Assembly: GCF_018446385.1 (NCBI RefSeq)
Contig: NC_055991.1
Coordinates: forward strand, 102,159,712 to 102,223,711
Reading direction: 5' to 3'
Source of the DNA: Zingiber officinale
Taxonomy: Eukaryota; Streptophyta; Magnoliopsida; Zingiberales; Zingiberaceae
Length of the DNA stretch: 64,000 nucleotides
Within the stretch, counting starts at the first letter, position 1. The number at the start of each line of letters is the position of its first letter. The position numbers and the translations under genes were made by a program. This document shows positions 23,011 to 52,098 of this stretch, piece after piece. The notes below the pieces were generated by a model that worked only from the letters and a program-made list of their open reading frames with translations, was not told the origin of the DNA and made no database searches.

Positions 23011-23012
23011 AT

Positions 23013-23024
23013 TGGTATCAGAGC
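23013..23024 (+). other. Copia A primer binding site
   Basis: TGGTATCAGAGC two bases after the LTR end, the usual tRNA-iMet-type site. Confidence 0.92.
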
Positions 23025-23272
23025 GGGGTCGTTTTGAATTGGTGCAACCACCTTTCAAAACAAATTTTTCGCAGTTTTTTTTCGTTTTCGGAGTCGAATT
23101 AGAATTTAGCCTTATAGCTATATTCTAATTTTTGTTTCCCTCGAATCGACTTTTGCTCGAAGTAGGTGCAACACCACTCGAGTTCGTTTTTATTATTCTT
23201 TATTCCAGCACTACTAATCCAAGACTTAGTCTTGGAACATATTCTGTTGTTTTCTTTTGTTACATATTATAA

Positions 23273-27475: not shown

Positions 27476-27481
27476 ATTTAG

Positions 27482-27565
27482 TGGTATCAGAGCGGGTACG
27501 ATGCTTGCTTTGTTTTTGTTTTAGATTTTTGAGATTTATCTGATACCAATTTTTGGTATCAGAGT
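27482..27565 (+). promoter_or_regulatory. Gy2 primer site and a second PBS-like copy
   Basis: TGGTATCAGAGC at 27482-27493 sits six bases after the LTR. A near copy, TGGTATCAGAGT, follows at 27554-27565, preceded by GATACCAATTTT. This is the same duplication pattern as in Gy1. Confidence 0.85.
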
Positions 27566-30890: not shown

Positions 30891-31077
30891 CAGTTGGTTA
30901 GGTAACCGTGTGGGAATAACAGAAGTAGGGTGAGCTCATGACTCACAGAGTCATCCTTTAGGGTTGGAGATTGGTTCATGATATTTGGATGGAGTGGTAT
31001 ATGAGGAGGTTGATTGGTGGTTACTTTGGATGAGGATCCCTAAGTTGACCAGTAAATTTGGGGACCAAATTTTTATG

Positions 31078-31089
31078 AGTGGGGGAGAA
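31078..31089 (+). other. Gy2 polypurine tract
   Basis: AGTGGGGGAGAA directly before the 3' LTR, identical to the Gy1 tract. Confidence 0.9.
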
Positions 31090-34000
31090 TGTAAGATACC
31101 GTAAAAGTAAATAAATATTATTGGACGGAAAATCTTATTGGATTTTTCAGGAATTTTTAGAAATTTTCTGGGAATTTTTCGGAGCTCGTACGGAGGGTTT
31201 GAGGGGATCGAACAGCGGGCACGGCTAAAGCCTGTTTGGAATACCCAATTAAAGTGGGATTTGATTGAGGAATTAACTTAGGTTTTAATTACCTAAACCT
31301 AAGTTTATAATCCCTAAATTTCCGACTCATCCTCCTCAACCCCGAGCCTTTCTCCTCTTCTCCCTCACGCACTACCCTCTCCGGCGATTTCTTCCCAGCG
31401 ACGCCGAGCACGCCACCGTCCGCCGGTGTAACCTCGGCCGAGCCTCCCTCTCCCTCTCCCTCTTCCTCTCGAGGAGTGGAATCTTTCCCCTATCTCACGA
31501 TTGATCCACCGCTGGCCCTCGAATCTGAGCGGAGCAACGGCGATTTCGTCAAGGAGGTCCATCAGTTCTTCCTCTCCACCAGATCTCGGTTCTTTGGCTT
31601 CGTCGGCATGGATCTGTCACGATCCTCCTCTTGATTTCCTCCGCCCGAGCCCTAGCGCCGTTGATTCTGATCAACCCACCGCCGGTCAAGAGGAAGAGGA
31701 TCTAAACCCTAGATTCAATCCCTCGTTACCTCACCTATGTGTGCGGCTTTAATCACTGGAGCCCCTGTTCCAGACGAGGATCTGTTGAATCTTGATGTTA
31801 TCTACATTGGCGTTGGCCACCTGTTGCAAGGAATTGTGGCCGGGCAGTGAACCATTGGAGATGGGGTTGTTGACATGGAATCAAGGTAGGCTTCATTCAT
31901 AATCATAAAGATTCAAAGTTCTTGCCTAATTGGTCTCAATTGTGATGTTCTTCTTGTTTTAGAATAGAGAAAGGCATGGATTGTGGACTTTTCCCGTTGC
32001 CATTCACTGTCTCTTCACTTCTAGTAGCTGTGGAGGTCTCGGTTGAAGAGGTGGGGATCAATTTAGGTGAGTTTCCTTTGGTGATGTATCTCTAGATCCT
32101 TCTATTATTGCTCTGCTCTATCAGTGTTATTAATGGATATTAGATCATGTTTAGATTAGAGCACATGGAAGCATGTAGAGGGATTCGTTGTAGTTGGATG
32201 CTCTTGTGTTGGATTAATTGATGACTGGTAGGTTATGTTTGGAAAGATTGAAGGAGTTATAAGGAGATTTGATTAGTGATAGATTAGTGAGAATTAAGGA
32301 AATCAATTGAGATGTAGGTTGATAAGGATTGGTATTGTATTATGATGGAGATTTCATGATCTGGGTTTGTTTGGATAAATGGTGATTAGTGGTTTAGAAG
32401 GATTTATGATGAGTTTGAACTAGTGTTTGATTGATGATGATTTATGTGAATTGAATTTAAGACGTGTTAATTGTGAGATAGGATTGATTCATTTGTGTGT
32501 TTGGAGATTAGTGTGCATTTTGTTGATGTATTGGTTGTTGATGACGATGTTAGGTTGTTGTGGATTTATGATGGAGATTTAATTTTATGATAGGTTATTG
32601 TGGGTGGATTTCATTATGTGGTGGACTGGTATTTAAGAGATGGATTTGTTATTGGAATTAAATAATGTGTTGATTTGGAGGATTAGTCAGAGATCAGTTT
32701 TGATTGGAGTGATCCTATTGGGTTTGGGATTTTATTTAGCTATTTAATTCATATAAATTTAGCTAAATGAAATATAAATATATTGATCGCAGGACTTGGA
32801 TTCGGGACGAGCGTCTCGACACGGGATTACTTGGCACGATCTACACTTTAAGGCGGGTATTTCTTCCTTTACCTCTATGTAGATTTTCTTATACTTAGTG
32901 CATGGTTGTTATCCGATGGATTAGACTGCTTTACCTTATATCATATCTGTTTATTGACTTCCTGCTAGAGACTTATGCTTGATCTTTGAGGTGTTCCATT
33001 TAATTCATATACAGTCTCAACTCTTGATATCTACTCTATGGTGATTACACGTGTAGAGTATGTCTTGTAGGGATTGTCGGGTGACTGGTATTATCATGCT
33101 GATTGGGTATATGATGTGGACTGTACATAGGTGGGTATGTGTATAGGAGTCATCGGGTTGACCGTGCATTTACATGTGGTGTGTATATCCGTATTTGTTA
33201 TGTACTTTTGGAGGAGTGTGTTGATTGCACGTCTGTGGTTTATACACGTGTCCGATGTGTTTTCATTGGAGGATACATGTTGATTGTATATGTGGGGTTG
33301 TCCATGTATGTCTGATATGTTCATTGGGGATTATTGGTTGATTATACATGTGTAGTTGTATACATATGTTTGGTGGGATATGTGGAGGTATCATGACGAT
33401 TATACTCATGTTGGAGGTATTTATGAGGTTTGGGATTGTTGCATGGATGATGATTATATATATATATCATGTTCATCATTCATTGCATCTGATGACCATT
33501 GTCTCCCTTGTGGTGAGAGAGTCATCAGTTGGTTTGGTTTAGCACCGCCCACTCGGCCACTCATGGGTAGTGGTAGTTGGAGCAGTTGCTGCTAGTCCTG
33601 TCGTGCCACCCGGTCACGAGGTTTAGTGAGATCCGGCGTTGTGAGCAGTCAGGGACCCTGATGCTATGTAGTTAGATAGCTACTAGCGGACTGTCCGCCT
33701 CGACCACTATATAGTGGGCTGGAGGGTAGTACAGTCGTCACAGACCCAAGCCTCTCGGCCATACAGGGGTCGTGGTGTTCGGAGAGGTGGCGGGGGTGAC
33801 CATGGAGCATGCATGCACTTTTGCATATGATGCATGGTGCATATATTTGCATACATGCCTAGTAGATACTAGTTGCATGTGATTGTCGTTGTTGCACTTG
33901 ATTGAGATATGGTTGTTGCATTTGGTTGCCATGCTGCATACATGTCATTTATTTTACATGTATATGCAGTCGTACTTATATTGCACAGGTGTCACGGGTA

Positions 34001-34745
34001 TATCTGTTGCAGATTCGGTGAGTTTATTGATCTTTGTACCTTACGTCGATTCCGGATTGGGTATGTATCTGTCCTTATGTTAGTTGTGGTTTGTACAGTT
34101 TATATGTCAGGTTATTATGTCAGGTATGTTCAGATGCATTGATTATGATAGTATGACCATGTTCTTTATTCCCTACTGAGACTGTATACTTGTGATCTCC
34201 ATGTTTTATGTATAGACCATGCACTATCTTTTCTATTACCCGCTGAGTTACCTATACTCACCACCGCATGTATATATTTATGTTTTCAGGTAGATGGTTG
34301 GAGTGTCGCTCGGAGTATCCTGTCTGCCGGGTCCTACGTCACATCCGAAGATCGTGCTTGTTTCCTTTGTATATTCTTTTCTTATCTTTGGCATTGTATT
34401 TGGGTTTAGCCATGTGGCTATCTTATTCTTTTGGTGTTGTATTTGTGGTTAAGCCGTGCCGGCATGCATTGTATCTATTTGTCTTGTGTGGGCTTTCTGT
34501 TTTCGTTTTTCCGCTGTGTTGGTTTTTAGTACAGCCGTGTGGGCTGTTTTATATATAACTGCGTGGTTGTGATTGTTTCATTCCAGCCGTGTGGGCTGTT
34601 ATTATAACTGCGTGGTTGTGTATATAAATATTCCAGCCGCATGTGGCTGATGTATTTTGCTTGTAGTGATGCTTCAGATTGTCACCGGTACAGGGGAGGT
34701 TCTGCCGGATTTTTGTCTGACAGGAACTCCTTTGGGGGCGTGACA
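31090..34745 (+). repeat. Gy2 3' LTR (3656 bp)
   Basis: Copy of 23833-27475. The main difference is TTTTTAGTACAGCC present near 34526 but absent at the matching place in the 5' LTR. The stem TGAGT/ACTCA is at 34244-34260 and CAG ends at 34289. Confidence 0.94.
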
Positions 34746-35848
34746 GTTTCCAAGGATTTATCTTCTTTAAAACTAGATGAACTTTTTAGTGAATTTGAAC
34801 TTCATGAGCAGACTAATGCACAGCCAACCGAGAAAGGTATTGCGTTGGTTGCAGGTACAAGCCGAACCCGGGAACCGAGACCATGATGGAGAACCGAACC
34901 AGCATCGGAAGCTGAACCAGACTCTGAAAATGAAGAAGGTGACATTACAATCGAGCTGGTAAACCTTGTGAAGAAGCTCTACAAGACGAAAGGATTCGAC
35001 AAAAGAGATCTAAAGAAGGCAGTAAAATCAAAGGAAGGCCCACAAAATACAAAGATGAAGTTTGAAGTTACATGCTACGGGTGTAACCAAAAAGGGCACA
35101 TCAAATCCAACTGCCCTAACCTGAAGGAGGTCAAAAAGCAAAGAAGGAAAAAGGTCCTTAAGGCAACATGGGACGAATCTTCATCGGAGGACGACGACGA
35201 CGAGCTCGAACAAACGAGTCTACTCGCATTAATGGCCCGGGACCAAGTCGTCGAATACGGATGCGAGAGCGAGTCTGAGGCAGAGTCCGAGCAAAGCCAC
35301 GGATCCGTATCCGTTTCCGAAGGACCAGACCCTGCTGTAAGTATCTCCCGGTTGAACATTTTAGTTAGCTATTTATTGCGCAAATTAGCTAAGTCAAACA
35401 TGAAAGTTAAGTCACTTCTAAAGGAAGTAAGTGTCCTTAAAGAAGTGACACTAAACCCTCACCTGACCAGAGTCAGACTGAATTTCCAACTCAAGTTCAA
35501 AAACTTGAGGAAGAAAATTCAAGTCTAACAAATCAGGTTAAAGATTTAGAAAATACCTTAGAACGGTTTACTTTGGGCTCCAAGAATTTGGACTTGATTC
35601 TTGGGACACAAAGAGCCGTCTACAACAGAACTGGGCTGGGATACAAAAGTAAATATAGATCTTATTTATCATTAATAAACCAACAAAGTATTAAATCAGT
35701 CCAAGCATGGGTCTCCAAGTCTAACTTGGTCAATCAAGTTGGACTAGGCCAATACTGGGTTCCGAAGAATCAAATATACTACCTCGATAGACCATATCGA
35801 GGCCATGATCCAGGGGGAGCAAAAAAAAAAACAATCCTAAAAATTTAA
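34746..35848 (+). pseudogene. Copia A gag, C-terminal part
   Basis: Resumes the gag frame at the TSD (VSKDLSSLKLDELFSEFELH). A CGA-to-TGA stop follows TREPRP near 34884. The CCHC zinc knuckle CYGCNQKGHIKSNC is intact (about 35073-35114), followed by the acidic Ser/Asp/Glu stretch. A two-base loss near 35448 shifts the frame after LLKEVSVLKEV. The terminal part (NQVGLGQYWVPKNQIYYLD) is open again from 35573 to 35848. Compared with B, three separate lesions (Gy2 insertion, stop, frameshift) inactivate this gag. Confidence 0.92.
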
Positions 35849-36977
35849 ATTCAAAATTCGAAATTAAAATTAAAAATTAAATTCAAAATTCGAAAAAAAT
35901 TAAAAATAAAATTCGAAATTGAAATTAAAAATTAAAGTTAAATTCAAAATTTGAAATTAAAATTAAAAATTAAATTCTAAATTGAAATTAAAGTTAAATT
36001 CAAAATTAGAAATTAAAATTAAAAAAATTAAATTCAAAATTCGAAATTAAAATTAAAAATTAAATTCAAAATTCGAAATTAAAATTAAAAATTCAAAATT
36101 CGAAATTAAAATTAAAAAATTAGATTCGAAATTGAAATTTAAAATTAAAGTATAAATTCAAAACTCAAGATTAAAATCAACTTCAAAATTAAGTTATAAA
36201 TTCAAGATTCGAAATTAAATTAAAATAAAGATGGAGGATCCAGACTCGCTGGCACCCCCAACTAAACTACCCGGCAGGGTAACTGAACCTAATCTACCCG
36301 AAATGGGTAAAACAAGAGTAGATTACTCGGCAGGGTAATTAAGGTTAGATTAAAACGGACTAAGGTTAACTTGAACCACAGTACTGGTTAAGTTTTTGGA
36401 TGATAGTACGTTAGGGAAGCTTGGGCATCGCATGTCTAGGAAGATATGGCTTCGACCTGGTGCATTTGGCCAAGTGGAACTGACCGAAGCTACCCTTAAA
36501 TGGATCCTGACTAGTTAGACCAAGGATTGGTATTAAGTTCAATGGGTAGGACTATTTGGAAAACCTCGAAGGCATGGTTACTTTAATGAGCTCCTTGTGA
36601 CTCACCATAGCCCAGAAGTTTATCCAAAGAATGCTTACTTGGTGAACCCAAAGCCAAATCTGAATCTAACACAAAGTTATACCAAACTCCTGAATTCAAC
36701 AATAAATCATCTCACATCAATCATAGGATTCCCTGATTGAAAATTTAGATCGGGTGAGATGACTAAGTAATAAAATTCATTTGAAAATTCCTTTCAAAAT
36801 CATTTCAAAATTATTTTCAAAACTCAAAATTATTTTAAAACTCAATTTCAAAACTCAATTTCAAAATTACTTTAAAACTCAATTTCAAAATTATCCTTAA
36901 AACTCAATTTCAAAATTTATCTCTAACAAGTTTACTTCAATTTAACTATCGTGAAATCCATTAAAACAATTCAACCA
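35849..36977 (+). other. Copia A gag-pol spacer with AT-rich repeat
   Basis: No reading frame links gag and pol for 1.1 kb. 35849-36225 is an expanded low-complexity array of AAATTCAAAATTCGAAATTAA-like units (only about 70 bp of it in B). 36235-36760 is a conserved non-coding block shared with B (47020-47560, including CCCGGCAGGGTAA). 36775-36925 is a second repeat of AAAACTCAATTTCAAAATTA units. Confidence 0.85.
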
Positions 36978-39900
36978 CTTCCTATGTAGGAATTGGATCA
37001 ATGGATGTTGGATAGTGGCTGCTCCAGACACATGACTGGAGATAAATTGAAGTTTACTAAATTCACGTACAAGAACTTAGGATCGGTTGCATTCGGTAAC
37101 GATGGTCAACTTAAGGTAATCGGAAGAGGTAATATCGAACTCAACTCCGATTTTATTATTCGAAAAGTCCTTTTAGTTGAAAATTTCAAGTTTAATTTAC
37201 TAAGTATAAGCCAATTGTGTGATAGCGGATACTTAGTAACTTTTGACAAAACCAAGTGTTTAGTTAAAAACATTGAAAATCCTGAAATCTTACTTAAAGG
37301 ACTTAGGATAAATAATATGTATTCAATTAATCTACCGACATCCTCAACAAAGTGTTTTCTAACACAAGAAGAGGAAACTGATTTGTGGCACAGAAGATTG
37401 TGTCACACTCACACTAGACTCATTTCAAAAATGAGTCATAATGGTCTAGTTAGAGGTTTGCCCAAATTAAAATTTATTGAAAACTCAATCTGTAATGCTT
37501 GTCAACAAGGAAAACAAACCAAGTCAACCCACAAGTCAACCAATCTAGAAAGAACTAACACTTTACTTGAGCTCCTTCACCTTGACCTATTTGATTCACA
37601 TGGAGCCAAGTCACTAAACAAAAACCAGTATTGTTTAGTGATAATTGATGACTACTCTAGGTTCACATGGGTAAAATTTCTAAAAACAAAAGATGAAACC
37701 TATGAAATATTCAGTAATTTTTGCAAATTAGTAGAAAATGAAAAAGACACTAAAATTAAACGAATAAGAAGTGATCATGGGGGAGAATTTGAAAATCATA
37801 GGTTTACCCAACTTTTTAAAATAAATGGATATCAACATGAATTTTCATGTCCTAGAACCCCAACAAAATGGTCTAGTGGAACGTAAAAATAGAACACTAC
37901 AAGAAGCCGCTAGAACCATGCTAAATGAATATAATTTAAATCACCAATTTTGGGCTGAAGCAATAAATACTGCAAATCATATTCAAAACAGAATCTTGAT
38001 CAACAAATTTCACAAGAAAACTCCTTATGAACTATATTATCATAAAATTCCTAACTTAAATTATTTAAAAGTATTTGGATGTAAAGTTCACATTTTAAAT
38101 ACTAAAGATTATTTAAGAAAATTCACACCCAAATCTAACAAAGGAATATTTTAGGATACTCCTCAAACAGTCGAGCCTATAGAGTCTACAATCAAAACAC
38201 CCTAAAAGTTGAAGAAACAACTAATATAATATTTGATGAAGAAAATAATCTACCAAATATAAATGAGAATGGTGATATTGATCCAAGAAATATAGAAGAT
38301 GATGAAATTCAACCAAATCTTAATAAACCAGAGGAACCAGCCCCTGACCCACTTATAAGACCAACTAGGGCCAGTACCTCTCACCCATCTGATCAAATTT
38401 TGGGTGATCCAAACCTAGGAGTCAGAACTAGATCCTCCTATAGAATCCACAGTCAGATTGCCCTAATTTCTAAAATCGAACCAAAAACAATAGAAGAAGC
38501 ACTACCTGACCCGGACTGGATCATAGCTATGCAGGAAGAGTTAGCCCAATTTGAGAGAAATCAAGTCTGGGAACTTGTATCTAAACCCTCAAATAAATCA
38601 ATAATCGATACAAAATGGGTATTTAGAAACAAGCTAGATGATCAAGGCGAAATAATTAGAAATAAGGCTAGGCTTGTAGCTAAAGGATTTAGCCAAGTTG
38701 AAGGTTTGGACTATGATGAAACCTATGCCCCAGTAGCTAGACTCGAATCCATTAGAATGTTGTTAGCCTATGCAGCAAACAAAGGATTTAAACTATACCA
38801 AATGGATGTCAAGTCAGCATTCTTAAATGGATTTATTAAGGAGGAAGTATATGTAAGCCAACCCCCAGGATTTGAGGACTTAGGATATCCTAATCATGTA
38901 TTTAAGTTAAAAAAAGGCCTTGTACGGACTTAAACAAGCCCCTAGGGCATGGTATGAACGATTATCAAATCACTTAATATCCAAAGGTTTCAACCAAGGT
39001 CAAATAGATCCAACTTTATTTGTAAAAACTGTAGAAAAAGACATCTTCATAGCTCAAATCTATGTTGATGATATAATTTTTGGATCAAATAACTCTAAAT
39101 TTTTAAAAGAATTTATTAGATTAATGGAAAATGAATTTGAAATGAGTATGGTTGGTGAACTTAATTTTTTCTTAGGCTTACAAATAAAACAAACTAAAGA
39201 TGAAATATACATTTATCAAACTAAATATGCAAAGGAATGAATTAAAAAATTCTGCATGGAAAATTCAAAAATAATAAATACTCCAATGGCAACCAACATT
39301 AACATAGACTCTGACCCTGAAGGAAAACCAGTAGATCCAAAGTACTATAGGAGTGCCATAGGAAGCTTGCTTTACCTAACTGCAAGCCGACCCGACATAT
39401 TATTTGCGGTTGGAATGTGCGCAAGATACCAATCTTGTGCAAAAGAGTCACATTTAACCTATGTTAAAAGAATACTTAGGTACATTAAAGGTACTCTAAA
39501 TATAGGACTCTGGTACCCTAGAACTTGCACCTTTGACCTTCTTGGCTATTCTGACTCGGATTACGCCGGATGCAAGTTAGATAGAAAAAGCACAAGTGGT
39601 AGTTGTCAATTTCTAGGACAATGCCTAGTAAGTTGGTCAAGTAGAAAGCAACATTGTGTTGCTTTATCTACCACTGAAGCTGAATATATAGCCTTAGGTG
39701 AATGCACATCTCAATTGCTTTGGATGATGCACACTCTTAAAGACTATCAACTGAACTATCATAACACAAAAATCTCAATTGATAATATAAGTTCCATATA
39801 TTTAACAAAAAACCCAATTCATCACTCAAGGACTAAACATATAGAAGTGAAGCACCATTTTGTAAGGGATCATGTAGCTAAGGGTGATATTATACTCAAC

Positions 39901-40005
39901 TATGTTGAGTCAAAATCCAATCTAGCTGACATCTTCACAAAACCCTTACCTGAACTTGAGTTCAGCTCACTTAGAAGACAAATAGGAATGTGTTGGGTAG
40001 AATAG
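36978..40005 (+). pseudogene. Copia A pol: protease, integrase, RT, RNase H
   Basis: Domain order is copia type. Protease-like start (MLDSGCSRHMTG, 37005); GAG-pre-integrase (LWHRRLCHTHTRL, CNACQQGKQTKS); integrase core (HLDLFDSHG, IIDDYSRFTWVKFL, RSDHGGEF, QQNGLVERKNRTLQ); linker; RT ([38 protein letters not shown] with the split at KQAPRAWYERL, catalytic YVDDIIFGS near 39061); RNase H (GYSDSDYAGCKLDRKSTSG, ALSTTEAEYIAL) and the C-terminus HIEVKHHFVRDHV. Breaks by eye: one-base frameshifts near 37860, 38150 and 38915, and a TGA at about 39238. A TAG at about 36985 precedes the protease frame, so pol was not simply fused to gag. Confidence 0.95.
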
Positions 40006-41295
40006 ACAATGTTTTTTAAATTAGTTATCATTTGCTTTTAAAATTCTAGGAAAAACAGTTTTCAAAACTCCAATTTTGTTAGATTTTTAAAATTTGGATT
40101 TAGCTTAGGTTTTCCCCTAGATATCATGTACCCCCAGATTAAAGCCAGAGCATCTCACAATCACCTAGGTATACCTTGCTTGTGTTTGACAAACTTAGAA
40201 TGGCGTGAGATGCATAGGGTATTGCCTAGACTCAGGAATGCTTATATTTGTGCATCGATATGAGTCTGGGCGTTAAACACATCATAAATAATAATCAAGT
40301 CAAGTCTTCCAGCTCTAGCCAACTCTAACTGGACCAAATGGACTTAATTTGACTAACCATGTGAAAGCTACTGCCCTCTAGGCAATCAGCAAGTAGCTAA
40401 AGGTTAGACAATTGGGAAAAGTGTGTTTCAATTTTTTTTAAGCATGATTGTACTTTAAGGTTCTAATCAAATTACCTTACCTGATTATTTTAAGGCTCTG
40501 ATACTTAATCAAATTAAACTCAATAATTTAATTTGACTCATGCTTGGACTAGAAACCAAACTACTGCTACTCCCTCTGTCCTAAAACTAAATAGTTTTTT
40601 TTTTAATATCAAATTTTCTTCAAAATAAGTATTCAAAACTTAATTATAGTTTTTCAAAACACTTATCCATGTAAGTGAGTATTCAAATACTTTCAAATCT
40701 AGTCACCTTTTTATAACATTTTAAAGTTATTGTTTTTCAAATGACCTCATATTTTATAACTTCTAAGCAAATCCTTTTATTGAAAATTCAAATACTCATA
40801 TTTTCAAACTTAGTTAATTTTAAGACTATTTTAACTAGACTTAGTTAGATTGTACTCTAAACTTAGCTATTTGGCAAAATATTTTTTCAATACAAATCAT
40901 TTCGAAGCTGAATATATAGCTAAGTATTTTCAAATTTGGCAAATTCCAAAATTCAAAAAGCTAAGTCGTTTTTGCTAAGAAGAAAATTTATCTTTTTCCC
41001 TCTTTGAAAATTTTCCTTCAGAAAAATACAAATCTACTTTCAAACTGGTTTATTTTTGATATATGGCAAAGGGGGAGAGTAGGTAAATTAAAGTTAAAGG
41101 AAAATTCAAAGTATTTAATAAAAGGAGGGCTTTTATTAAGGGGGAGTCTAATATTACAAAGTTAAAAGTTTCCAGCTTAACTGTTATTGCATTTGAAGTT
41201 TATTTACTTAAGCTTGGTTAACTTTATGCAGTTATTACATATGTTGTTTTTCTTAACTTTGAATTACGTGTTGCCATAATCAAAAAGGGGGAGAT
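40006..41295 (+). other. Copia A 3' non-coding region and polypurine tract
   Basis: Non-coding sequence between pol and the 3' LTR, shared with B from the TAGGAAAAACAGTTTTCAAAA block onward (compare 40047 and 49484). AAAAAGGGGGAGAT at 41282-41295 is the polypurine tract. No gene seen. Confidence 0.85.
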
Positions 41296-42488
41296 TGTTG
41301 GTGCGGGAAGCATCCGACGATCGAACCTAAGTTTTGATAATGGCAAAGGATTCAAAGTTAAGGTGCTTTGTTATCTGACAGCTTTTGCTGAGTGTTTCAG
41401 GAAAGTCCTAACTGCGGTTAGGCAAGGTAAAACCCTAGGGGGTGGTAACCCTAGGTCATAGGGGGTGGTAACCCTATGCGGAAAGTCTTGGCAGGTCGAT
41501 GGTTTCAGGCAAAAGTCCTAGGGGGTGGTAACCCTAGGTGGAAAGTCCTGTTGTCGCGAACCAGGTGAAAGTCTGAACTGGCCGGTGAAGCGGATGTTCA
41601 GCAGAAAGTCCGGAAGCATCGAGTGCTGAGCAAAAGTCCAGTCGATCTGGAGGATCGTACTGGCAACAGGTAAATCTCCTGAGTGGAGTAGGTGAGGACG
41701 CGTTCCCCGTAGAGGGAACAGTAGGCGTCGGGTCGACCTAGGGTTTTCGGGAGGAAACCTGAAGTCAGACCCGGACAGTTCGAATGCTGTCAAAACTTTT
41801 ATCATTCATTATGTTTCATTGCTAACTTTGTTTTGCAGGGTATGTGTTTGGGACTAACACATTTTGCAGGAACAAAGGAGCAAGTTACAACTCGGATGAA
41901 CAGTGTCCGAGGCGCCTCCATGGAGCTTGGAGGCGCCTCGGGTGCGAGCCAGGAAAAGGCAGCAGACTGGAGGCGCCTTGAATGGAGTTCAAGGCGCCTT
42001 GGACCGGAGGTTGAAGGCGCCTTGAACCAGATAGAGTTCGACCAGGTCCGTGCTGATCCACGCGGGTGACTCGGCTCGTTCAAGGCGCTTTGTTGAACAG
42101 TATAAGGTGCCTTGAACCCCCTTTATAAGGGGTCTCGACCAGCAGCTTCAAAACACAACTTCCAAGCTTCCATTCTGCTGTGTTCTGCTCAAGTGCTGCT
42201 TCCGAAGTGCTGTTGCAACATTCCGACGACCCGAAGCTCAGATTTCTTTTCTACTACTGTTGTCGGTATAATTTTAATTGCAGTTACATTTCGTAATTAA
42301 TCTGTAATATTCATACGAAATTATAGTTGTTGCCCACGGAAAGCGATCAAGGATCGCGGGCCTTCGAGTAGGAGTCGACCTAGGCTCCGAACGAAGTAAA
42401 CCACTGTGTTCTTGTGTTTGTTTCCTTTATTCCGCTGCTTTAATTACTCTACGAACGTTTTACGATTCCGATAATCGAACAAATAGCC
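41296..42488 (+). repeat. Copia A 3' LTR, 3' end missing
   Basis: Starts TGTTGGTGCGGGAAGC after the purine tract and follows the 5' LTR to CAAATAGCC. The expected last ~40 bp (CTCTAGCGCGTCTCGATCCAACA) are replaced by the TRIM junction at 42489. Confidence 0.9.
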
Positions 42489-43046: not shown

Positions 43047-43813
43047 AATCGAGACGCGCTAGAGGGAAGGAGGTTGCACCAATTCAAAACGACCCCGCTC
43101 TGATACCAATTGTTGGATCGAGACGCGCTAGAGGGGGGGGGGGTGAAGAGCGCTCGTGGCTATTTGTTCGATTATCGGAATCGTAAAACGTTCGTAGAGT
43201 AATTAAAGCAACGAAATAAAGGAAACAAACACAAGAACACAGTGGTTTACTTCGTTCGGAGCCTAGGTCGACTCCTACTCGAAGGCCCGCGATCCTTGAT
43301 CGCTTTCCGTGGGCAACAACTATAATTTTGTATGAATATTACAGATTAATTATGAAATGTAACTGCAATTAAAATTATACCGACAACATTAGTAGAAAAT
43401 AAATCTGAGCTTTGGGTCGTCGGAATGTTGCAACAGCACTTCGGAAGCAGCACTTGAGCAGAACACAGCAGAATGGAAGCTTGGAAGTTGTTATTTTGAA
43501 GCTGCTGGTCGAGACCCCTTATAAAGGGGGTTCAAGGCGCCTTATACTGTTCACCAAGGCGCCTTGAATGAGCCGAGTCACCCGCGTGGATCAGCACGGA
43601 CCTGGTCGAACTCTATATGGTTCAAGGCGCCTTCAGCCTATCCAAGGCGCCTTCAACCTCCGGTCCAAGGCGCCTTGGACTCGATTCAAGGCGCCTCCAG
43701 TCTGTTGCGCTGGCCTTTTCCTGGCTCGCACCCGAGGCGCCTCCAAGCTCCATGGAGGCACCTCGGCACTGTTCATCCGAGGTCTTTTTCCCACTTTGGT
43801 CCCTGCAAGATAT
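43047..43813 (-). repeat. Copia C fragment: LTR 3' part, PBS and leader, inverted
   Basis: On the minus strand this is the family LTR from the GGCGCC boxes to its end (boundary 43111), the primer site (43097-43108) and about 25 bp of leader. A second stray copy of the LTR terminus (CTCTAGCGCGTCTCGAT) lies next to the TRIM. The rest of this LTR is at 51675-52098, separated by element B. Confidence 0.88.
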
Positions 43814-43924
43814 TGTTGGTGCGGGAAGCATCCGACGATCGAACCTAAGTTTTGATAATGGCAAAGGATTCAAAGTTAAGGTGCTTTGTCATCTGACAGC
43901 TTTTGCTGAGTGTTTCAGGAAAGT

Positions 43925-44276
43925 CCTAACTGCGGTTAGGCAAGGTAAAACCCTAGGGGGTGGTAACCCTAGGTCATAGGGGGTGGTAACCCTATGCGGA
44001 AAGTCTTGGTAGGTCGATGGCTTCAGGCAAAAGTCCTAGGGGGTGGTAACCCTAGGTGGAAAGTCCTGGTGTCGCGAACCAGGTGAAAGTCTGAACTGGC
44101 CGGTGAAGCGGATGTTCAGCAGAAAGTCCGGGAGCATCGAGTGCCGAGCAAAAGTCTAGTCGATCTGGAGGATCGTACTAGCAACAGGTAAAATCTCCTG
44201 AGAGGAGTAGGTGAGGACGCGTTCCCCGTAGAGGGAACAGTAGGCGTCGGGTCGACCTAGGGTTTCCGGTAGGAAA
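43925..44276. repeat. Chain of eleven short inverted repeats in the LTR U3
   Basis: Successive perfect stems: CCTAAC/GTTAGG (43925), CCTAGGG/CCCTAGG (43952), CATAGGG/CCCTATG (43975), CCTAGGG/CCCTAGG (44035), CCTGGT/ACCAGG (44065), CTGAAC/GTTCAG (about 44090), CGATC/GATCG (44161), CTCCT/AGGAG (44195), GTTCCC/GGGAAC (44221), GGTCGACC (44250), TTTCC/GGAAA (44263). Many are separated by the direct repeat GAAAGTC or AAAAGTC. Three share the loop GGTGGTAA. Confidence 0.8.
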
Positions 44277-44404
44277 TCCGAAGTCAGACTGTCATAATTT
44301 CATATTCATACTGTTATGTTGTGTTTACTTTGTGTTGCAGGTATCTTTGGATTAACATACTTGCAGGTACCAAAAACACAAAGAAGGACTCGGATGAACA
44401 GTGT

Positions 44405-44653
44405 CCGAGGCGCCTCCATGGAGCTTGGAGGCGCCTCGGGTGCGAGCCAGGAAAAGGCCAGCGCAGCAGACTGGAGGCGCCTTGGATGGAGTTCAAGGCG
44501 CCTTGAACCGAAGGTTGGAGGCGCCTTGGATAGGCTGAAGGCGCCTTAAACCAGATAGAGTTCGACCAGGTCCGTGCTGATCCACGCGGGTGACTCGGCT
44601 CGTTCAAGGCGCCTTGGTGAACAGTGTAAGGCGCCTTGAACCCCCTTTATAAG
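44405..44653 (+). promoter_or_regulatory. Copia B LTR promoter: GGCGCC boxes and TATA
   Basis: Boxes GAGGCGCCTC and AAGGCGCCTT recur eight times between 44405 and 44637, ending 8-10 bp before CTTTATAAG. The 3' LTR repeats this at 51035-51283. Transcription is expected to start about 30 bp after the TATA. Confidence 0.7.
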
Positions 44654-45046
44654 GGGTCTCGACCAGCAGCTTCAAACATCAAGCTTTCAAGTGATTCCAG
44701 TGCTGCGTGCTGCTCAAAACAACGTTTCGAAGTGCTGCTACTTGTGACCGACGACCAGGAGCGCCGAATCTTCATTTCTTTGTCGTCGGTATACTTATTT
44801 ATAGTTGTTTATTGTACTTCAACTTGTAATTCATATCGAGATTATAGTTGTTGCCCACCGGAAGCGATAAAGGATCGCAGGCCTTCGAGTAGGAGTCGCC
44901 TTAGGCTCCGAACGAAGTAAATCCACTGTGTCTCTGTGTTTGTTTCTTTATTCCGCTGCGTATTTTACTCCGATAATTTTACGAATCGAACAATTTAGCT
45001 GCGAGCGCTATTCACCCCCCCTCTAGCGCGATCTCGATCCAACAAT

Positions 45047-45058
45047 TGGTATCAGAGC
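45047..45058 (+). other. Copia B primer binding site
   Basis: TGGTATCAGAGC two bases after the LTR. Confidence 0.93.
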
Positions 45059-45306: not shown

Positions 45307-46968
45307 ATGGCCCAACAAGAAGGATATAGCACCGTTCGTCCCCCACTATTTTCCGGAGAAGACTTCGGGTATTGGAAGGGGCGAATGGAGATATATCTGA
45401 AGATCCAGTTCGAAACCTGGATGATCATCAAAACTGGAATGGAACTGCCAACTGGTATCGACGGTAAGCCTACACCCTGTGAAAATTGGGAGCCAGCATT
45501 TATCAAAAGGGTGGAAGCTGACGCAAAAGCCACCTGCACCATCCAATGTGGTCTTACCAAAGAAGAGCTCAACAGAGTCGGTCCATTCTCCTCCGCAAAA
45601 GAACTCTGGGAAAAGCTCATCGAACTCCACGAAGGCACTGACGACACCAAGGTAAGTAAAAGAGATCTTTTACTTAATAAATTATATAATCTAAAAATGC
45701 AGGAAGGCGAAACGGCAAGCTCTCTTCACGCAAGAATACAAGACATCCTTAACTCTCTTCACGGAATTGGCCAGAAGATAGAAAATAGGGACGTAATAAG
45801 GTATGCCCTAAACTCGTTTCCAAGGAATACATTGTGGGCATCAATGGTAGATGCCTACAAAGTTTCCAAGGATTTATCTTCTTTAAAACTAGATGAACTT
45901 TTTAGTGAATTTGAACTTCATGAGCAGACTAATGCACAGCCTACCGAGAAAGGTATTGCGTTGGTTGCAGGTACAAGCCGAACCCGGGAACCGAGACCTC
46001 GACGGAGAACCGAACCAGCATCGGAAGCTGAACCAGACTCTGATGATGAAGAAGGTGACATTACAACCGAGCTGGTAAATCTCGTGAAGAAGCTCTACAA
46101 GACGAAAGGATTCGACAAAAGAGATCTAAAGAAGGTAGTGAAATCAAAGGAAGGCCCACAAAATACAAAGATGAAGTTTGGAGTTACATGCTACGGGTGT
46201 AACCAAAAAGGGCACATCAAAACCAACTGCCCTAACCTGAAGGAGGTCAAAAAGCAAAGAAGGAAAAAGGTCCTTAAGGCAACATGGGACGAATCTTCAT
46301 CGGAGGACGACGACGACGAGCTCGAACAAACGAGTCTACTTGCATTAATGGCCCGGGACCAAGTCGTCGAATCCGGATGCGAGAGCGAGTCTGAGGCAGA
46401 GTCCGAGCAAAGCCACGGATCCGTATCCGTTTCCGAAGGACCAGACCCCGCTGTAAGTATCTCCCGGTTGAACATTTTAGTTAGCTATTTATTGCGCAAA
46501 TTAGCTAAATCAAATCTGAAAGTTAAGTCACTTCTAAAGGAAGTCAGTGTTCTTAAAGAAGTGGCTAACACCAAACCCTTACCTGACCAGAGTCAGACTG
46601 AATTTCCGACTCAAGTTCAAAAACTTGAGGAAGAAAATTCAAGTCTAACAAATCGGGTTAAAGATTTAGAAAATACCTTAGAACGGTTTACTTTGGGCTC
46701 CAAGAATTTGGACTTGATTCTTGGGACACAAAGAGCCATTTACAACAGAACTGGGCTGGGTTACAAAAGTAAATATAAATCTTATATATCATTAATAAAC
46801 AAACAAAGTCATAAAACAGTCCAAGCATGGGTCTCCAAGTCTAACTTGGTTAATCAAGTTGGACTTGGACAATACTGGGTTCCAAAGGATCAAATATACT
46901 ACCTCGATAGACCATATCGAGGCCATGATCCAGGGGGAGCAAAAAGAAAAACAATCCTAAGAATTTAA
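45307..46968 (+). CDS. gag: Copia B gag polyprotein, intact, 553 aa
   Basis: Capsid/nucleocapsid protein of a Ty1/copia element; it packages element RNA in cytoplasmic particles. The ATG at 45307 (MAQQEGYSTVRPPLFSGEDF) is the first in frame after the PBS leader. Residues ~10-200 are the copia gag core (YWKGRMEIYLKIQFETW, ELWEKLIELHEGTDDTKVSK, LHARIQDILNSLHGIGQ). A CCHC zinc knuckle CYGCNQKGHIKTNC is at about 296-309. A Glu/Asp/Ser-rich stretch (~325-385), a Leu/Lys helical segment likely to form coiled coil (~395-470) and a conserved end (NQVGLGQYWVPKDQIYYLD) follow. No frame lesions, unlike the homologue in A, which suggests recent selection or very recent birth. It ends before any protease, and no pol follows. 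Confidence 0.95.
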   Translation: MAQQEGYSTVRPPLFSGEDFGYWKGRMEIYLKIQFETWMIIKTGMELPTGIDGKPTPCENWEPAFIKRVEADAKATCTIQCGLTKEELNRVGPFSSAKELWEKLIELHEGTDDTKVSKRDLLLNKLYNLKMQEGETASSLHARIQDILNSLHGIGQKIENRDVIRYALNSFPRNTLWASMVDAYKVSKDLSSLKLDELFSEFELHEQTNAQPTEKGIALVAGTSRTREPRPRRRTEPASEAEPDSDDEEGDITTELVNLVKKLYKTKGFDKRDLKKVVKSKEGPQNTKMKFGVTCYGCNQKGHIKTNCPNLKEVKKQRRKKVLKATWDESSSEDDDDELEQTSLLALMARDQVVESGCESESEAESEQSHGSVSVSEGPDPAVSISRLNILVSYLLRKLAKSNLKVKSLLKEVSVLKEVANTKPLPDQSQTEFPTQVQKLEEENSSLTNRVKDLENTLERFTLGSKNLDLILGTQRAIYNRTGLGYKSKYKSYISLINKQSHKTVQAWVSKSNLVNQVGLGQYWVPKDQIYYLDRPYRGHDPGGAKRKTILRI

Positions 46969-47740
46969 AATTTAAATTCAAAATTGAAAATTAAAATTCA
47001 AAGATAAAACTCAAAATAAAGATGAGGGATCCAGACTCGCTGGCACCCCCAAACTAACCTACCCGGCAGGGTAACTGAACCTAATCTACCCGAAATGGGT
47101 AAAACAAGAGTAGATTACCCGGCAGGGTAATTAAGGTTAGATTAAAACGGACTAAGGTTAACTTGAACCACAGTACTGGTGAAATTTTTGGATGATAGTA
47201 CGTTAGGGAAGCTTGGGCATCGCATGTCTAGGAAGATATGGCTTCAACCTGGTGCATTTGGCCAAGTGGAACTGACCGAAGCTACCCTTAAATGAATCCC
47301 GACTAGTTAGACCAAGGATTGGTATTAAGTTCAATGGGTAGGACTATTTGGAAAACCTCGAAGGCATGGTTACTTTAATGAGCTCCTTGTGACTCACCAT
47401 AGCTCAGAAGTTTATCCAAAGAATGCTTACTTGTTGAACCCAAGGCCAAACCTAAATCTAACACAAGTTAAACCAAAATCCTGAATTCAACAATAAATCA
47501 TCTCACATCAATCATAAGATTCCCTGATTGAAAACTTAGATCGGGTGAGATGACTAAGTTTTAAAAAAACTCAATTTCAAAATTATTTTAAAAAAAAAAA
47601 AAAAAACTTAATTTCAAAATTATTTTAAAAACTTAATTTCAAAATTATTTTAAAACTTAATTTCAAAATTATTTTAAAAAAAAAAAAAAAAAAAAAAACT
47701 TAATTTCAAAATTATTTTTAAAAAAAAAATCTTTAAATTT

Positions 47741-47776
<36 letters not shown>
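46969..47776 (+). other. Copia B spacer with long A-runs
   Basis: Non-coding block shared with the gag-pol spacer of A (47020-47560), then AACTTAATTTCAAAATTATTTT units interrupted by runs of 15-27 A (47590-47776). The last A-run abuts the acquired segment. Confidence 0.85.
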
Positions 47777-47779
<3 letters not shown>

Positions 47780-48061
47780 CTGGGAGCTTATCAAAGGCGC
47801 CTCCCATCAAAAGGAGGCGCCCTAGCAAGCGGCGGGAAGATTCCCGCCGCTTCGTCTTAAGGCGCCTCGGATCAACCCAAGGCGCCTCCAATCGGTTATA
47901 GAAGGCGCCTTAGTCCTTGTTTTAAGGCGCCTTCAACCGTTTATATCAAAACAAACAGAAGCTCTTCTGCTCGTTTTCTGCCGACGCCGAGCACGCAAAA
48001 CTCGTGCATTTTCTTCCCAACTAAGGCGCCTTCAACCATTTTTTTCCCTCTCTACGTGACA
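47777..48061 (+). promoter_or_regulatory. Promoter-like leader of the acquired gene
   Basis: Seven or so GGCGCC boxes (first 47796-47801, last about 48025), with GGCGCCTCC/GGAGGCGCC forming a hairpin (47796-47821). A perfect GCGGCGGGAA-GA-TTCCCGCCGC palindrome lies at 47829-47850, whose arms match the E2F-type WTTSSCSS pattern. AAGGCGCCTTCAACCGTTTATAT (about 47924-47946) matches the box-plus-TATA layout of the host LTR. The leader then runs to the ATG at 48062. Confidence 0.6.
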
Positions 48062-49368
48062 ATGCCTCCTAGGTATAATCCTAATCCCTTCCGATCAAAG
48101 TTTTACTTAAAATTTTTGTTTATTTCTGTCAATTTTTGGTAAAAATCGTTCAAAATAGGAAACGCCGACATGTTGATCTTAATCCAGCTAGAATTCCATC
48201 AGCAGATATCAGATTCCCAACTATTCATCTTAGGGATACCTTTGCTAATTACGTCTTTGAACCTATCAAACCAAGATATGTAAATAAGACTTTTTATACC
48301 CAGTATTGTCAACCAACTATCCAAATGATAGAGCACTATCAACTGGATCAAGTAGTTTACTGCACCGATACAGTAAACCAGGAGTTGTGTGCACAGTTTT
48401 ATCACAATCTTGAGAGGATTGATGATAATAGGTACAGCACTAGAGTTTCTGGCGTAGACATTGAGCTTACTCCCACTCTACTACGCACCACCTTAGGACT
48501 TAGGGGTTCTGAGTCTACCTTTCTATGCTACCCCAGTAGGGATCTACCATTTGGCGATCCTTACTCCCACATTACGTTAGATACTATCTATACGTATTTC
48601 CTCGGGGGAGCGAGACCTGCTGACTTGACTGAGGTCAGGTCAGTTACTCTTCGCATTCAGGACTACATGATGTATAGGGTCCTGACAGCATGTATTCTGC
48701 CGATCTCATCTCGGGATGTCCCGAAGATGAGATCTTCACACTCATTTTTCTTGTACGCCCTATGTCATCGATTGGATATCGATATTGCCCTGCATATGTT
48801 CCAGAACATTATCTGTGCATCTGGGACAGTTACCTCCAAGATAGTCCACATGCCCTATTGTCATATTCTGACACGCTTCTTTTCGACTATAGAGGGTATA
48901 GACGTGACCAGAGGAACAGTCATTCCTCTCACTATATATGATGAGCTAGGATCCCGTAGTTGTAGACTAGCCAGTGCCGATATCACAGCTGATGGAGTTC
49001 TAGCATGGATAGGTCGACCACAGCAGGCAGCTGCCCCTATTGCTCCGGCAGCCGAGGATTTACCAGGCGAGGGAGAGGAGTGGGCTGATTTCTTAGCTGA
49101 GGATCTTTTCGCGGATCCCTCCCCGTCTGCCAGACCATCCACCTCAGCTGGACCTTCGACCTCTTCCTCACTCTCCGTTGAGGACAGACTTGCTCGACTC
49201 GAGGTTGAGTCCATCCAGACACGACGGATAGTTCTCTCGATTCGATCCGAGATGGCTGCTGGATTTACGTCCCTTCGTGACGAGATACGACGGCTAGGTC
49301 AGCCAGCACCTGAGCAGCCCCATGATCCTCCAGCTAGTTCTCCTCGAGCAGATGATCCTTCTATTTGA
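48062..49368 (+). CDS. Acquired two-exon gene, putative plant transposon protein-like, 406 aa predicted
   Basis: Seen: an open frame from 48136 has no ATG start, but ATGCCTCCTAG (48062-48072) joined to 48159 by removing an 86-nt AU-rich GT...AG segment gives MPPRKRRHVDL in frame, with AG|GTATAA and AATAG|GA junctions. The predicted protein has a basic start, then a region (~20-270) with FYHNLERIDDNRYSTRVSG, LRTTLGLRG, MYRVLTACILPIS and MPYCHILTRFFSTIEGI. This order resembles the plant 'putative plant transposon protein' family and, more distantly, Athila ORF1. An Ala/Pro/Ser/acidic linker (~275-335) and a heptad-rich segment (VEDRLARLEVESIQTRRI, ~340-385) follow. No enzyme motif is seen. It occupies the place of pol in element B. 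Family assignment is by pattern memory; the function is unknown. Confidence 0.72.
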
Positions 49369-50440
49369 TATGACTCTGTTATGCAGTATTCTGTGGATTA
49401 TTGTCACACTTGTTTAGACTTCCTTATTCTGTCCATATACTTATTTGCATGATTATCTAAGTTTACTTATCACTCATTTAAATGCTAGGGAAAACAGTTT
49501 TCAAAATTCCAATTTTTTTTAGATTTCTAAAAATTTGGATTTAACTTAAGTTTTCCCTTAGAAATCATGTTCCCCTAGATTAAAGCCAGAGCATCTCACA
49601 AACACCTAGGACTACCTTGCTTGTGTTTGAACAACTTAGAATGGCGTGAGATGCATAGGGTACAGCCTGGACTCAGGAATGCTTATATTTGTGCATCAAT
49701 ATGAGTCTGGGCGTTAAACACATCATAAATATTAATCAAGTCAAGTCTTCCAGCTCTAGACAAATCTAACTGGACCAAAAGGACTTAATTTGACTAACCA
49801 TGTGAAAGCTACTGCCCTCTAGGCAATCAGCAAGTAGCTAAAGGTTAGACAGTTGGAAAAAGTGTGTTTCAATTTAAGCATAATTATACTTTACGGTTCT
49901 AATCAAATTACTTTACCGGATCATTTTAGGGCTCTGATACTTAATCAAATTAAACTTAATAATTTGACTCATGCTTGGACTGAAAACAAACTCCTACTAA
50001 TTCCCCTGTCCTAAAACTGAATATTTGGCTAATTTTCTTCAAAATGAGTATTCAAAACTCATTTACAGTTTTTTTAACCATGTAATTGAATATTCAACTA
50101 TTTTGAAAATATTTTATAACTTAAGTAGTTTTGCTAAGAAGAAAACTTATCTTTTCCCTCTTTGAAAATTTTCCCTATCTACTATCAAACTGGTTTATTT
50201 TTGATATATGGCAAAGGGGGAGAGTAGGTAATTAAAGTTAAAAGGAAAATTCAAAGTATTTAATAAAAGGAGTTTTTTTTTTAAGGGGGAGCCTAATATT
50301 ACAAAGTTAAAAGTTTCCAGCTTAACTGTTATTGCATTTGAAGTTTATTTACTTAAGCTTGGTTAACTTAATGCATTTATTACATATCTTATTTTTCTTA
50401 ACTTTGAATTACGTGTTGCCATAATCAAAAAGGGGGAGAT
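49369..50440 (+). other. Copia B 3' non-coding region and polypurine tract
   Basis: 49369-49483 belongs to the acquired segment (3' UTR-like, no match in A). From about 49484 the sequence follows A's 3' region. The purine tract AAAAAGGGGGAGAT is at 50427-50440. No gene seen. Confidence 0.85.
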
Positions 50441-51674
50441 TGTTGGTGCGGGAAGCATCCGACGATCGAACCTAAGTTTTGATAATGGCAAAGGATTCAA
50501 AGTTAAGGTGCTTTGTCATCTGACAGCTTTTGCTGAGTGTTTCAGGAAAGTCCTAACTGCGGTTAGGCAAGGTAAAACCCTAGGGGGTGGTAACCCTAGG
50601 TCATAGGGGGTGGTAACCCTATGCGGAAAGTCTTGGTAGGTCGATGGCTTCAGGCAAAAGTCCTAGGGGGTGGTAACCCTAGGTGGAAAGTCCTGGTGTC
50701 GCGAACCAGGTGAAAGTCTGAACTGGCCGGTGAAGCGGATGTTCAGCAGAAAGTCCGGGAGCATCGAGTGCCGAGCAAAAGTCTAGTCGATCTGGAGGAT
50801 CGTAAATCTCCTGAGAGGAGTAGGTGAGGACGCGTTCCCCGTAGAGGGAACAGTAGGCGTCGGGTCGACCTAGGGTTTCCGGTAGGAAATCCGAAGTCAG
50901 ACCCGGACAGTCCGGAGACTGTCATAATTTCATATTCATACTGTTATGTTGTGTTTACTTTGTGTTGCAGGTATCTTTGGATTAACATACTTGCAGGTAC
51001 CAAAAACACAAAGAAGGACTCGGATGAACAGTGTCCGAGGCGCCTCCATGGAGCTTGGAGGCGCCTCGGGTGCGAGCCAGGAAAAGGCCAGCGCAGCAGA
51101 CTGGAGGCGCCTTGGATGGAGTTCAAGGCGCCTTGAACCGAAGGTTGGAGGCGCCTTGGATAGGCTGAAGGCGCCTTAAACCAGATAGAGTTCGACCAGG
51201 TCCGTGCTGATCCACGCGGGTGACTCGGCTCGTTCAAGGCGCCTTGGTGAACAGTGTAAGGCGCCTTGAACCCCCTTTATAAGGGGTCTCGACCAGCAGC
51301 TTCAAACATCAAGCTTTCAAGTGATTCCAGTGCTGCGTGCTGCTCAAAACAACGTTTCGAAGTGCTGCTACTTGTGACCGACGACCAGGAGCGCCGAATC
51401 TTCATTTCTTTGTCGTCGGTATACTTATTTATAGTTGTTTATTGTACTTCAACTTGTAATTCATATCGAGATTATAGTTGTTGCCCACCGGAAGCGATAA
51501 AGGATCGCGGGCCTTCGAGTAGGAGTCGCCTTAGGCTCCGAACGAAGTAAATCCACTGTGTCTCTGTGTTTGTTTCTTTATTCCGCTGCGTATTTTACTC
51601 CGATAATTTTACGAATCGAACAATTTAGCTGCGAGCGCTATTCACCCCCCCTCTAGCGCGATCTCGATCCAACA
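50441..51674 (+). repeat. Copia B 3' LTR (1234 bp)
   Basis: Almost identical to 43814-45044; it lacks CTAGCAACAGGTAA near 50803 and keeps the 17 bp lost from the 5' copy. Confidence 0.95.
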
Positions 51675-52098
51675 GATATGTTAATCCCAAAAATATCCTG
51701 CAGCACAAAGTTAGCACAAAACAGTGATATAAGTATTGAAATATTTGACAGTCTCTGGACTGTCCGAGTCTGACTTCAGGTTTTCCACCGGAAATCCTAG
51801 GTCGACCCGACGCCTATTGTTCCCTCTACGGGGAACGCGTCCTCACCTACTCCACTCAGGAGATTTACCTGTTGCCAGTACGATCCTCTAGATCGACTGG
51901 ACTTTTGCTCGACACTCGATGCTTCCGGACTTTCTGCTGAACATCCGCTTCACCGGCCAGTTCAGACTTTCACCTGGTTCGCAACACCAGGACTTTCCAC
52001 CTAGGGTTACCACCCCCTAGGACTTTTGCCTGAAGCCATCGACCTGCCAAGACTTTCCGCATAGGGTTACCACCCCCTATGACCTAGGGTTACCACCC
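51675..52098 (-). repeat. Copia C fragment: LTR 5' part, inverted
   Basis: Reverse complement of the family LTR from the first GGTGGTAACCCTAGG stem-loop to GGGATTAACATAT, where it meets the TSD GATAT and element B. It joins 43813 when B is removed. The first ~135 bp of this LTR are missing at 52098. Confidence 0.9.

What the first reader, a model, noticed from the sequence alone, without database searches (positions are those of the whole stretch)
47777..49483. A copia retrotransposon carries an acquired gene in place of pol
Elements A and B share LTRs, PBS, gag, the spacer block and the 3' region. Between matching points (A about 36978-40046, B 47777-49483) A has PR-IN-RT-RNase H while B has a 1.7 kb segment with its own promoter-like leader and a 406-aa predicted gene of the plant 'putative plant transposon protein'/Athila ORF1 type. 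Gag in B is intact and the LTRs are nearly identical, so this chimera has moved recently. A gag-plus-foreign-gene element that borrows pol could be a gene-carrying retrotransposon lineage; the gene may serve the element (for example RNA or DNA binding) rather than being a passenger.
Basis: partly seen in the sequence, partly recalled or inferred. Interest (0 to 1): 0.9.

Follow-up and report, generated by a model that had tools for sequence, protein, structure and literature searches.

The report
Polymerase-less half of a plant retrotransposon
A family of plant jumping genes comes in two matching versions, one carrying the copying enzymes and one carrying a different, conserved gene instead, and the second version seems to move by borrowing the enzymes of the first.

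Summary
B (43814-51674) is a complete copia-type element: LTRs differing by 1 substitution in 1217 aligned bases, TSD GATAT, intact gag, no pol, and a 406-aa gene with one intron where element A has pol. It is a family: 30 genome places were fetched, 0 of 30 show pol; five of five copies with both LTRs complete have TSDs, all different. Patterns give about 166 such genes against 2731 pol ends. The gene is under purifying selection (dN/dS 0.11), as is gag. One inspected copy, and three more by pattern, lack exactly the intron, so spliced RNA was reverse transcribed. Gag and ORF lineages occur in all four combinations, and ORF copy L038 matches pol-bearing A at 97-99% outside the slot: the forms recombine.

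Homologous genes lie just downstream of pol in related copia families (3 of 3 fetched; 72 of the 150 best PF20167 hits by coordinates). So B most likely lost pol and kept, or took from kin, the lineage's third gene, which A lacks. I read A and B as complementary halves of one system. The gene's leader and both forms' LTRs share spaced RAGGCGCCTY palindromes, suggesting, unproven, a trans-acting regulator.

The parts
43809..43813 (.). left TSD of B, GATAT
43814..45044 (+). 5' LTR of B (TGTTGG...CCAACA), 8 GGCGCC palindromes
45047..45058 (+). PBS TGGTATCAGAGC (initiator-Met tRNA type, name recalled)
45307..46968 (+). gag of B, 553 aa, open; gag evolves under purifying selection
46969..47776 (+). 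A+T-rich spacer with variable tandem repeats; its first part is shared with A (36171-36902)
47777..48062 (+). leader/promoter-like region of the third gene: 7 GGCGCC sites spaced 20,45,20,23,22,99; TATATC at 47942
48063..48073 (+). exon 1, ATGCCTCCTAG
48074..48157 (+). intron GT...AG, 84 nt; exactly absent in L004, and the spliced junction matches at three further places
48158..49368 (+). exon 2; third gene, 406 aa in all; basic N-terminus, PF20167-type domain, acidic stretch, possible coiled coil (my reading)
49464..50436 (+). 3' internal region shared with A (40021-41290)
50426..50440 (+). polypurine tract CAAAAAGGGGGAGAT
50441..51674 (+). 3' LTR of B, 8 GGCGCC palindromes
51675..51679 (.). 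right TSD of B, GATAT
21817..42488 (+). element A (pol form, damaged; holds a nested element at 23833-34749)
37005..40005 (+). pol of A (protease motif, integrase, RT, RNase H; frame broken)

Best explanation
B is the gag-plus-third-gene half of a two-form copia retrotransposon; A is the gag-plus-pol half. The ancestor most likely had gag, pol and a PF20167 gene between pol and the 3' LTR, as related copia families here still do. B lost pol (or took the gene from such a relative), A lost the third gene. B RNA is transcribed from its LTR, packaged with Gag, and copied and integrated by Pol supplied in trans by A-type elements through shared LTR, PBS and PPT. During reverse transcription the two RNAs recombine, so cassettes move between backbones. 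The third gene has its own leader and one intron; genomic RNA usually keeps the intron. Its product, basic at the N-terminus, with an acidic stretch and a likely coiled coil, is under selection and is proposed to act in the nucleus on RAGGCGCCTY arrays in its own leader and in the LTRs of both forms. Shown: architecture, TSDs, pattern counts, selection, recombination, intron loss, pol-gene order in relatives. Inferred: trans-mobilisation by A, direction of loss, expression. Hypothesis only: DNA binding and regulation.
For: TSDs in 5 of 5 copies whose two LTRs were complete in the cut, all different. At 30 of 30 fetched places leader and spacer repeat precede the gene, at 29 of 30 the 3' region follows (L025 not), pol at 0 of 30; the 16 wider cuts of 16 of these places agree. 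A-type: pol runs straight into the 3' region in A, in L047 (the one pol hit fetched with its downstream side) and in the 40 scored of 6233 candidates. Counts within 1 mismatch: 2731 pol ends, 162 intron-bearing and 4 intronless third genes, backward-read controls 0. dN/dS 0.110 between ORF lineages; 18 synonymous to 5 nonsynonymous near-fixed differences, P 8e-8. Gag and ORF lineages in all four combinations; L038 versus A 97.4-99.2% in eight segments outside the slot, two of them only partly covered. Pol then PF20167 gene in 3 of 3 fetched relatives and in 72 of 150 top PF20167 hits, 0 in another arrangement within 5 kb.
Against: No experiment shows that A mobilises B. Pol ends outnumber third genes about 16 to 1, so A may not need the third gene and the relation may be one-sided. 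The 40 copies are the best-scoring ones, which favours the uninterrupted junction. No gag-pol-third-gene copy of this very family was seen, so loss of pol in place versus transfer from a relative is undecided. 78 of the 150 PF20167 hits had no partner in the capped RNase H list; their surroundings are unknown. B's protein scores below the Pfam cut-off. By stops and frame-changing gaps only 8 of 17 copies have a fully open gag. The link between palindromes and protein is untested, and the palindromes could serve a host factor.
Confidence: 0.7

Rival explanations
1. One reading: a foreign (host or Athila-type) gene was transduced into a copia element and replaced pol, making a gene-carrying lineage.
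For: Same slot, own leader and intron; an ATHILA ORF-1 type match (PF03078, E 1e-4) lies elsewhere in the window.
Against: Homologues of the gene lie just after pol in related copia families, so the lineage carries it.
Confidence: 0.08
2. B's ancestor was A-like without the gene, and took the third gene from a different gag-pol-gene copia family by template switching, losing pol in the same event.
For: Recombination between forms is plain here; no full-length ancestor of the family was seen.
Against: B's gene is not clearly nearer to one sampled relative: identities B-L049 39%, B-L048 32%, L048-L049 35%.
Confidence: 0.25
3. B copies are ordinary deletion derivatives without function; the selection seen in the gene was exerted while it sat in an unsampled autonomous element.
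For: Non-autonomous copies are common in plants (passages of PMC5738225 and PMC9744471).
Against: 30 of 30 places share the pol-less order, copies of both ORF lineages share the 5' junction (five copies), dS between lineages is 0.11, dN/dS within them still 0.16 and 0.22, and B inserted very recently.
Confidence: 0.12
4. The cassette is a later insertion of another mobile element into B.
For: A 6-bp ATCACT occurs near both junctions in B, which is within chance.
Against: The same junctions recur at loci with different TSDs.
Confidence: 0.01

Closest known systems
Semi-autonomous gag-bearing LTR elements: RLG_Sabrina_SA and RLG_WHAM with RLG_Wilma, RLG_Quinta with RLG_Cereba, RLC_Giselle with RLC_Inga
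   Same: Lack RT and IN, keep gag, are matched to an autonomous partner by PBS and other shared motifs; recombination around gag in Quinta (passages of PMC9744471 and PMC5738225, abstract and passages of PMC11302176)
   Different: B carries a further, selected gene that the pol-bearing partner lacks, on a nearly identical backbone, with exchange of the slot. PMC9744471 does mention Sabrina variants with unique coding segments.
Additional sense ORFs downstream of pol (aORF-3S; Athila, Bagy2 and others)
   Same: The gene family sits in that position in related copia families here; Transposase_32 was reported in a 3' additional ORF of a sunflower Athila (passages of PMC11728184 and PMC7264820)
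   Different: Copia rather than gypsy; in B the gene follows the gag spacer directly; no transmembrane segment found in B
Bs1 of maize (transduced host gene)
   Same: An LTR element carrying a non-element gene (passages of PMC7264820 and PMC13317346; that Bs1 lacks pol is recalled)
   Different: Here the gene has relatives inside retrotransposons, and there are many copies
VANC anti-silencing proteins of VANDAL transposons
   Same: Transposon protein plus repeated short motif in non-coding parts of the element (passages of PMC5735166)
   Different: Sequence relation not tested; binding here is hypothesis

Membership tests
Semi-autonomous LTR retrotransposon | intact gag, no RT/IN | tested here: met
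   Met by B. In the family 14 of 17 copies have no stop in the gag frame and 8 of 17 neither stops nor frame-changing gaps
Semi-autonomous LTR retrotransposon | LTR, PBS and PPT shared with a pol-bearing element of the same genome | tested here: met
   activity of the partner was not measured
Semi-autonomous LTR retrotransposon | mobilised in trans by the partner | not testable with these tools
   needs expression or cDNA data
Transduced host gene (Bs1-like) | gene derives from a host locus | tested here: inconclusive
   Three relatives looked at lie in copia elements after pol; no host locus was sought as such, and 78 of 150 PF20167 hits have unknown surroundings
3' sense additional ORF (aORF-3S) | sense ORF between pol and 3' LTR | tested here: met
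   Met by relatives L048 and L049 (PPT and LTR start seen) and, as to pol, L052; in B itself pol is absent
env-like ORF | transmembrane segment | tested here: not met
   highest 19-residue hydropathy 1.13 in B (usual limit about 1.6, recalled); L048 reaches 1.73, L049 1.56
Pfam PF20167 Transposase_32 | score above curated cut-off | tested here: inconclusive
   B 40.6 of 45 bits; homologues L048 and L049 54 and 58 bits, 32 and 39% identical to B over about 280 residues
VANC-like sequence-specific regulator | protein binds the repeated motif and relieves silencing | not testable with these tools
   only the motif arrays were examined

The most novel reading that the evidence does not exclude
A two-part (bipartite) LTR retrotransposon: one form carries gag and pol, the other gag and a selected regulator gene, on one exchangeable backbone, with the regulator acting in trans through RAGGCGCCTY operator-like arrays spaced by about two helical turns in its own promoter and in the LTRs of both forms, much as multipartite viruses share genes between segments.
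Probability: 0.25. Interest if true: 0.85.

Novelty: new variant of a known kind. Interest (0 to 1): 0.62.

Why it matters
Gag-bearing partners of autonomous retrotransposons are known, but here the enzyme-less form keeps, under selection, a gene that the enzyme-bearing form lacks, and the two forms swap that slot on one backbone. That makes the unknown function of plant retrotransposon 'extra' genes testable with natural with/without pairs, gives a marked intron that reports reverse transcription of spliced RNA, and points to a concrete DNA motif as a possible target.

Tried and rejected
Homologues in the 5.8-billion protein set: none at E<=1e-3. IMG/VR loci for ORF and gag: none confirmed. 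PDB by sequence: one match at E 0.78, of no use. Structure prediction never ran (queue full). Own TSD or TIR of the cassette: considered by eye, rejected because the junctions recur at independent insertions. Leader as a copy of the LTR array: weak, partly inverted BLAST matches; of six registers compared, same order gave P 0.055, two others 0.022 and 0.026, three 0.27-0.34, so not settled. One search used a wrong codon phase for the ORF; its ORF values are void and one search replaces them (its gag values stand). L015 was left out of the dN/dS set (frameshift; 29 of 30 used). The automatic LTR pairing of L035 joined two neighbouring LTRs, gave no TSD and was not counted. Ten paper searches listed no description of this arrangement; seven papers were opened, as passages, one also as abstract.

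Full report
Observation. A self-comparison of the window shows that the element at 43814-51674 (B) and the damaged element at 21817-42488 (A) share LTRs, the stretch after the 5' LTR, gag, a spacer and the 3' internal region, and differ between spacer and 3' region. A has copia protease motif, integrase, RT and RNase H there (RNase H by my reading, no Pfam hit); B has 1.7 kb with one long gene. B is complete: TGTTGG...CCAACA ends, PBS TGGTATCAGAGC at 45047, polypurine tract before 50441, 5-bp TSD GATAT, one substitution between LTRs over 1217 aligned bases (0.03 My at 1.3e-8 per site and year).

The gene. The reading frame opens upstream of 48325 and joins, across a GT-AG intron 48074-48157, to an 11-base first exon at 48063. 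One of 30 fetched copies, L004, lacks exactly that stretch. A whole-genome pattern search for the spliced junction finds 4 places with at most one mismatch, L004's among them; two of the four share one and the same mismatch, so they may not be independent, and only L004 was read. The intron's 3' end with exon 2 is found 162 times at the same tolerance; controls were 0 in both. So the intron is real, spliced RNA has been reverse transcribed, and most transmitted RNA kept it. Pfam finds PF20167 (Transposase_32) at E 3e-10, 40.6 bits, cut-off 45. The protein has a basic start (MPPRKRR), a strongly acidic stretch at about 281-340 and no strongly hydrophobic 19-residue stretch; the coiled coil is my reading of the C-terminus.

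A family. The own-genome search (3.09 Gb, 211 contigs) had 3793 first-look candidates for the gene and scored the best 40, all full length at 96-100%. Thirty places were cut with 1.5 kb on each side, and 16 of the same places again with up to 10 kb. Of the 30, 25 have the second exon free of stops and frameshifts. Leader and spacer repeat are present in 30 of 30, the unique part of the spacer in 17 of 30 (elsewhere the repeat array is longer than the cut), the 3' region in 29 of 30 and pol in 0 of 30; in the wider cuts leader, spacer and 3' region are present in 16 of 16 and pol in 0 of 16. Among the wider cuts and B, five pairs of complete LTRs bounding the element could be measured; all five have TSDs, all different (GATAT, CTCAG, CTCCT, CAATG, AAAAT), LTR distances 0.0008-0.020.

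Selection. Pairwise Nei-Gojobori values over exon 2: dS 0.112 and dN 0.012 between the two ORF lineages (ratio 0.110; 72 pairs), ratios 0.156 and 0.220 within them; gag 0.130 between its two lineages (66 pairs) (one search gives 0.117, 0.166, 0.227 on 29 copies). Of 23 differences near fixation (at least 85% in each group) between ORF lineages 18 are synonymous (P 8e-8 against the site fraction, 3e-5 against a lenient 35%). Copies were chosen by DNA similarity, not by coding state. Gag is less well kept: 14 of 17 copies have no stop in frame and 8 of 17 neither stops nor frame-changing gaps.

Recombination. The 5' third of gag splits the 17 copies into two lineages that do not follow the ORF lineages: B, L032, L033 / L039, L045, L046 / L031, L034, L035, L036, L044 / L037, L038, L040-L043 fill all four combinations. 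L043 is cut at its 5' end and its place is uncertain; the four combinations stand without it. Against B the first 550 bases of gag are 97-99% identical in one group and 87-89% in the other (L043 95% over the 56% present), the rest of gag 96-98% in all. Outside the slot, pol-bearing A and ORF-bearing L038 are 97.4-99.2% identical in each of eight segments (gaps left out, two segments only 47 and 61% covered), and L038 is nearer to A than to B in each. The slot content has therefore changed on one backbone.

Where the gene comes from. PF20167 has 7315 first-look candidates in the genome; the 150 scored all exceed the cut-off. Three were looked at: L048 with L050 upstream, L049 with L051 upstream, and L052. 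In 3 of 3 a copia RNase H region (76-81% identical to A's) ends about 1.2-1.5 kb before the gene, and in L048 and L049 a purine-rich tract and a TGTTG LTR start follow (L052's cut ends with the gene). The proteins of L048 and L049 are 32 and 39% identical to B's over about 280 residues. By coordinates, 72 of the 150 top PF20167 hits have a hit of L050's RNase H 1.3-4.0 kb upstream on the same strand and none has one in another arrangement within 5 kb. The RNase H list held only the best 150 of 98939 candidates, so 72 is a floor, and the other 78 hits are of unknown surroundings. Hence the gene is a third gene of this copia lineage. In contrast A-type elements run from pol directly into the 3' region: in A, in L047 (the one pol hit whose downstream side was fetched), and in the 40 scored of 6233 candidates for that junction (a best-scoring list favours this outcome). 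Of the 21 third-gene places on contigs C1 and C2 none lies within 92 kb of the 93 exact pol ends there (pol ends with a mismatch were not listed). So, as far as seen, the two genes are apart within the A/B family.

Numbers. 2731 pol ends against 166 third genes at one mismatch. The patterns differ in length and place, so the ratio is rough.

A possible target. GGCGCC occurs 49 times in the window, 42 of them in the LTRs, LTR fragment and leader of these elements, 41 of those as RAGGCGCCTY; none in B's gag, ORF and 3' region or A's pol. Dinucleotide shuffles of three such segments give 0.2-0.3 on average, at most 3 in 500, against 7 or 8 seen. Leaders of 17 of 17 copies keep 6 or 7. In the 11 other copies for which at least 1.0 kb of one LTR could be read, 10 have 7 or 8 and L046 has 6; in 5 the cut ended before the array or no LTR start was matched. 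Spacings are 21,46,21,23,20,68,22 in the LTR and 20,45,20,23,22,99 in the leader. Common origin of leader and LTR array is not shown. A host factor is an equally simple reader of the motif, so regulation by the third-gene product remains a hypothesis.

Assessment. As a kind it is a semi-autonomous LTR element with a twist: the enzyme-less partner holds a selected gene that the enzyme-bearing partner lacks.

Noticed in passing
23833-34749: A's gag is interrupted by a nested element of about 10.9 kb with direct terminal repeats of about 3.66 kb (99% identical) and GTTTC on both sides.
   Followed up: partly
13404-13796, minus strand: ATHILA ORF-1 type match (PF03078, E 1e-4); upstream on the same strand, 14801-15373, a frame that I read as gypsy integrase though Pfam gave no hit. 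If so, a similar third-gene position in an Athila-like element.
   Followed up: no
46969-47776 and 35849-36989: About 0.8-1.1 kb A+T-rich spacer with tandem repeats of variable copy number between the gag stop and the next gene; pol of the A form lies behind it as a separate frame.
   Followed up: no
47827-47852: Inverted pair GGCGGGAA/TTCCCGCC in B's leader, resembling E2F sites (recalled); 7 of 17 copies lack one or both halves.
   Followed up: partly
43067-43817: Inverted fragment of the same LTR family directly before B.
   Followed up: no
G000:C7:43970036 and C7:43979305, and like pairs: Some PF20167 hits lie 9.15-9.27 kb apart in tandem on one strand, as if neighbouring elements share an LTR; three RNase H hits at C14:58.04 Mb are 5.2 kb apart.
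   Followed up: no
1-2693 and 7826-10479: Direct repeats of 2.7 kb, 97.6% identical, probably LTRs of another element.
   Followed up: no
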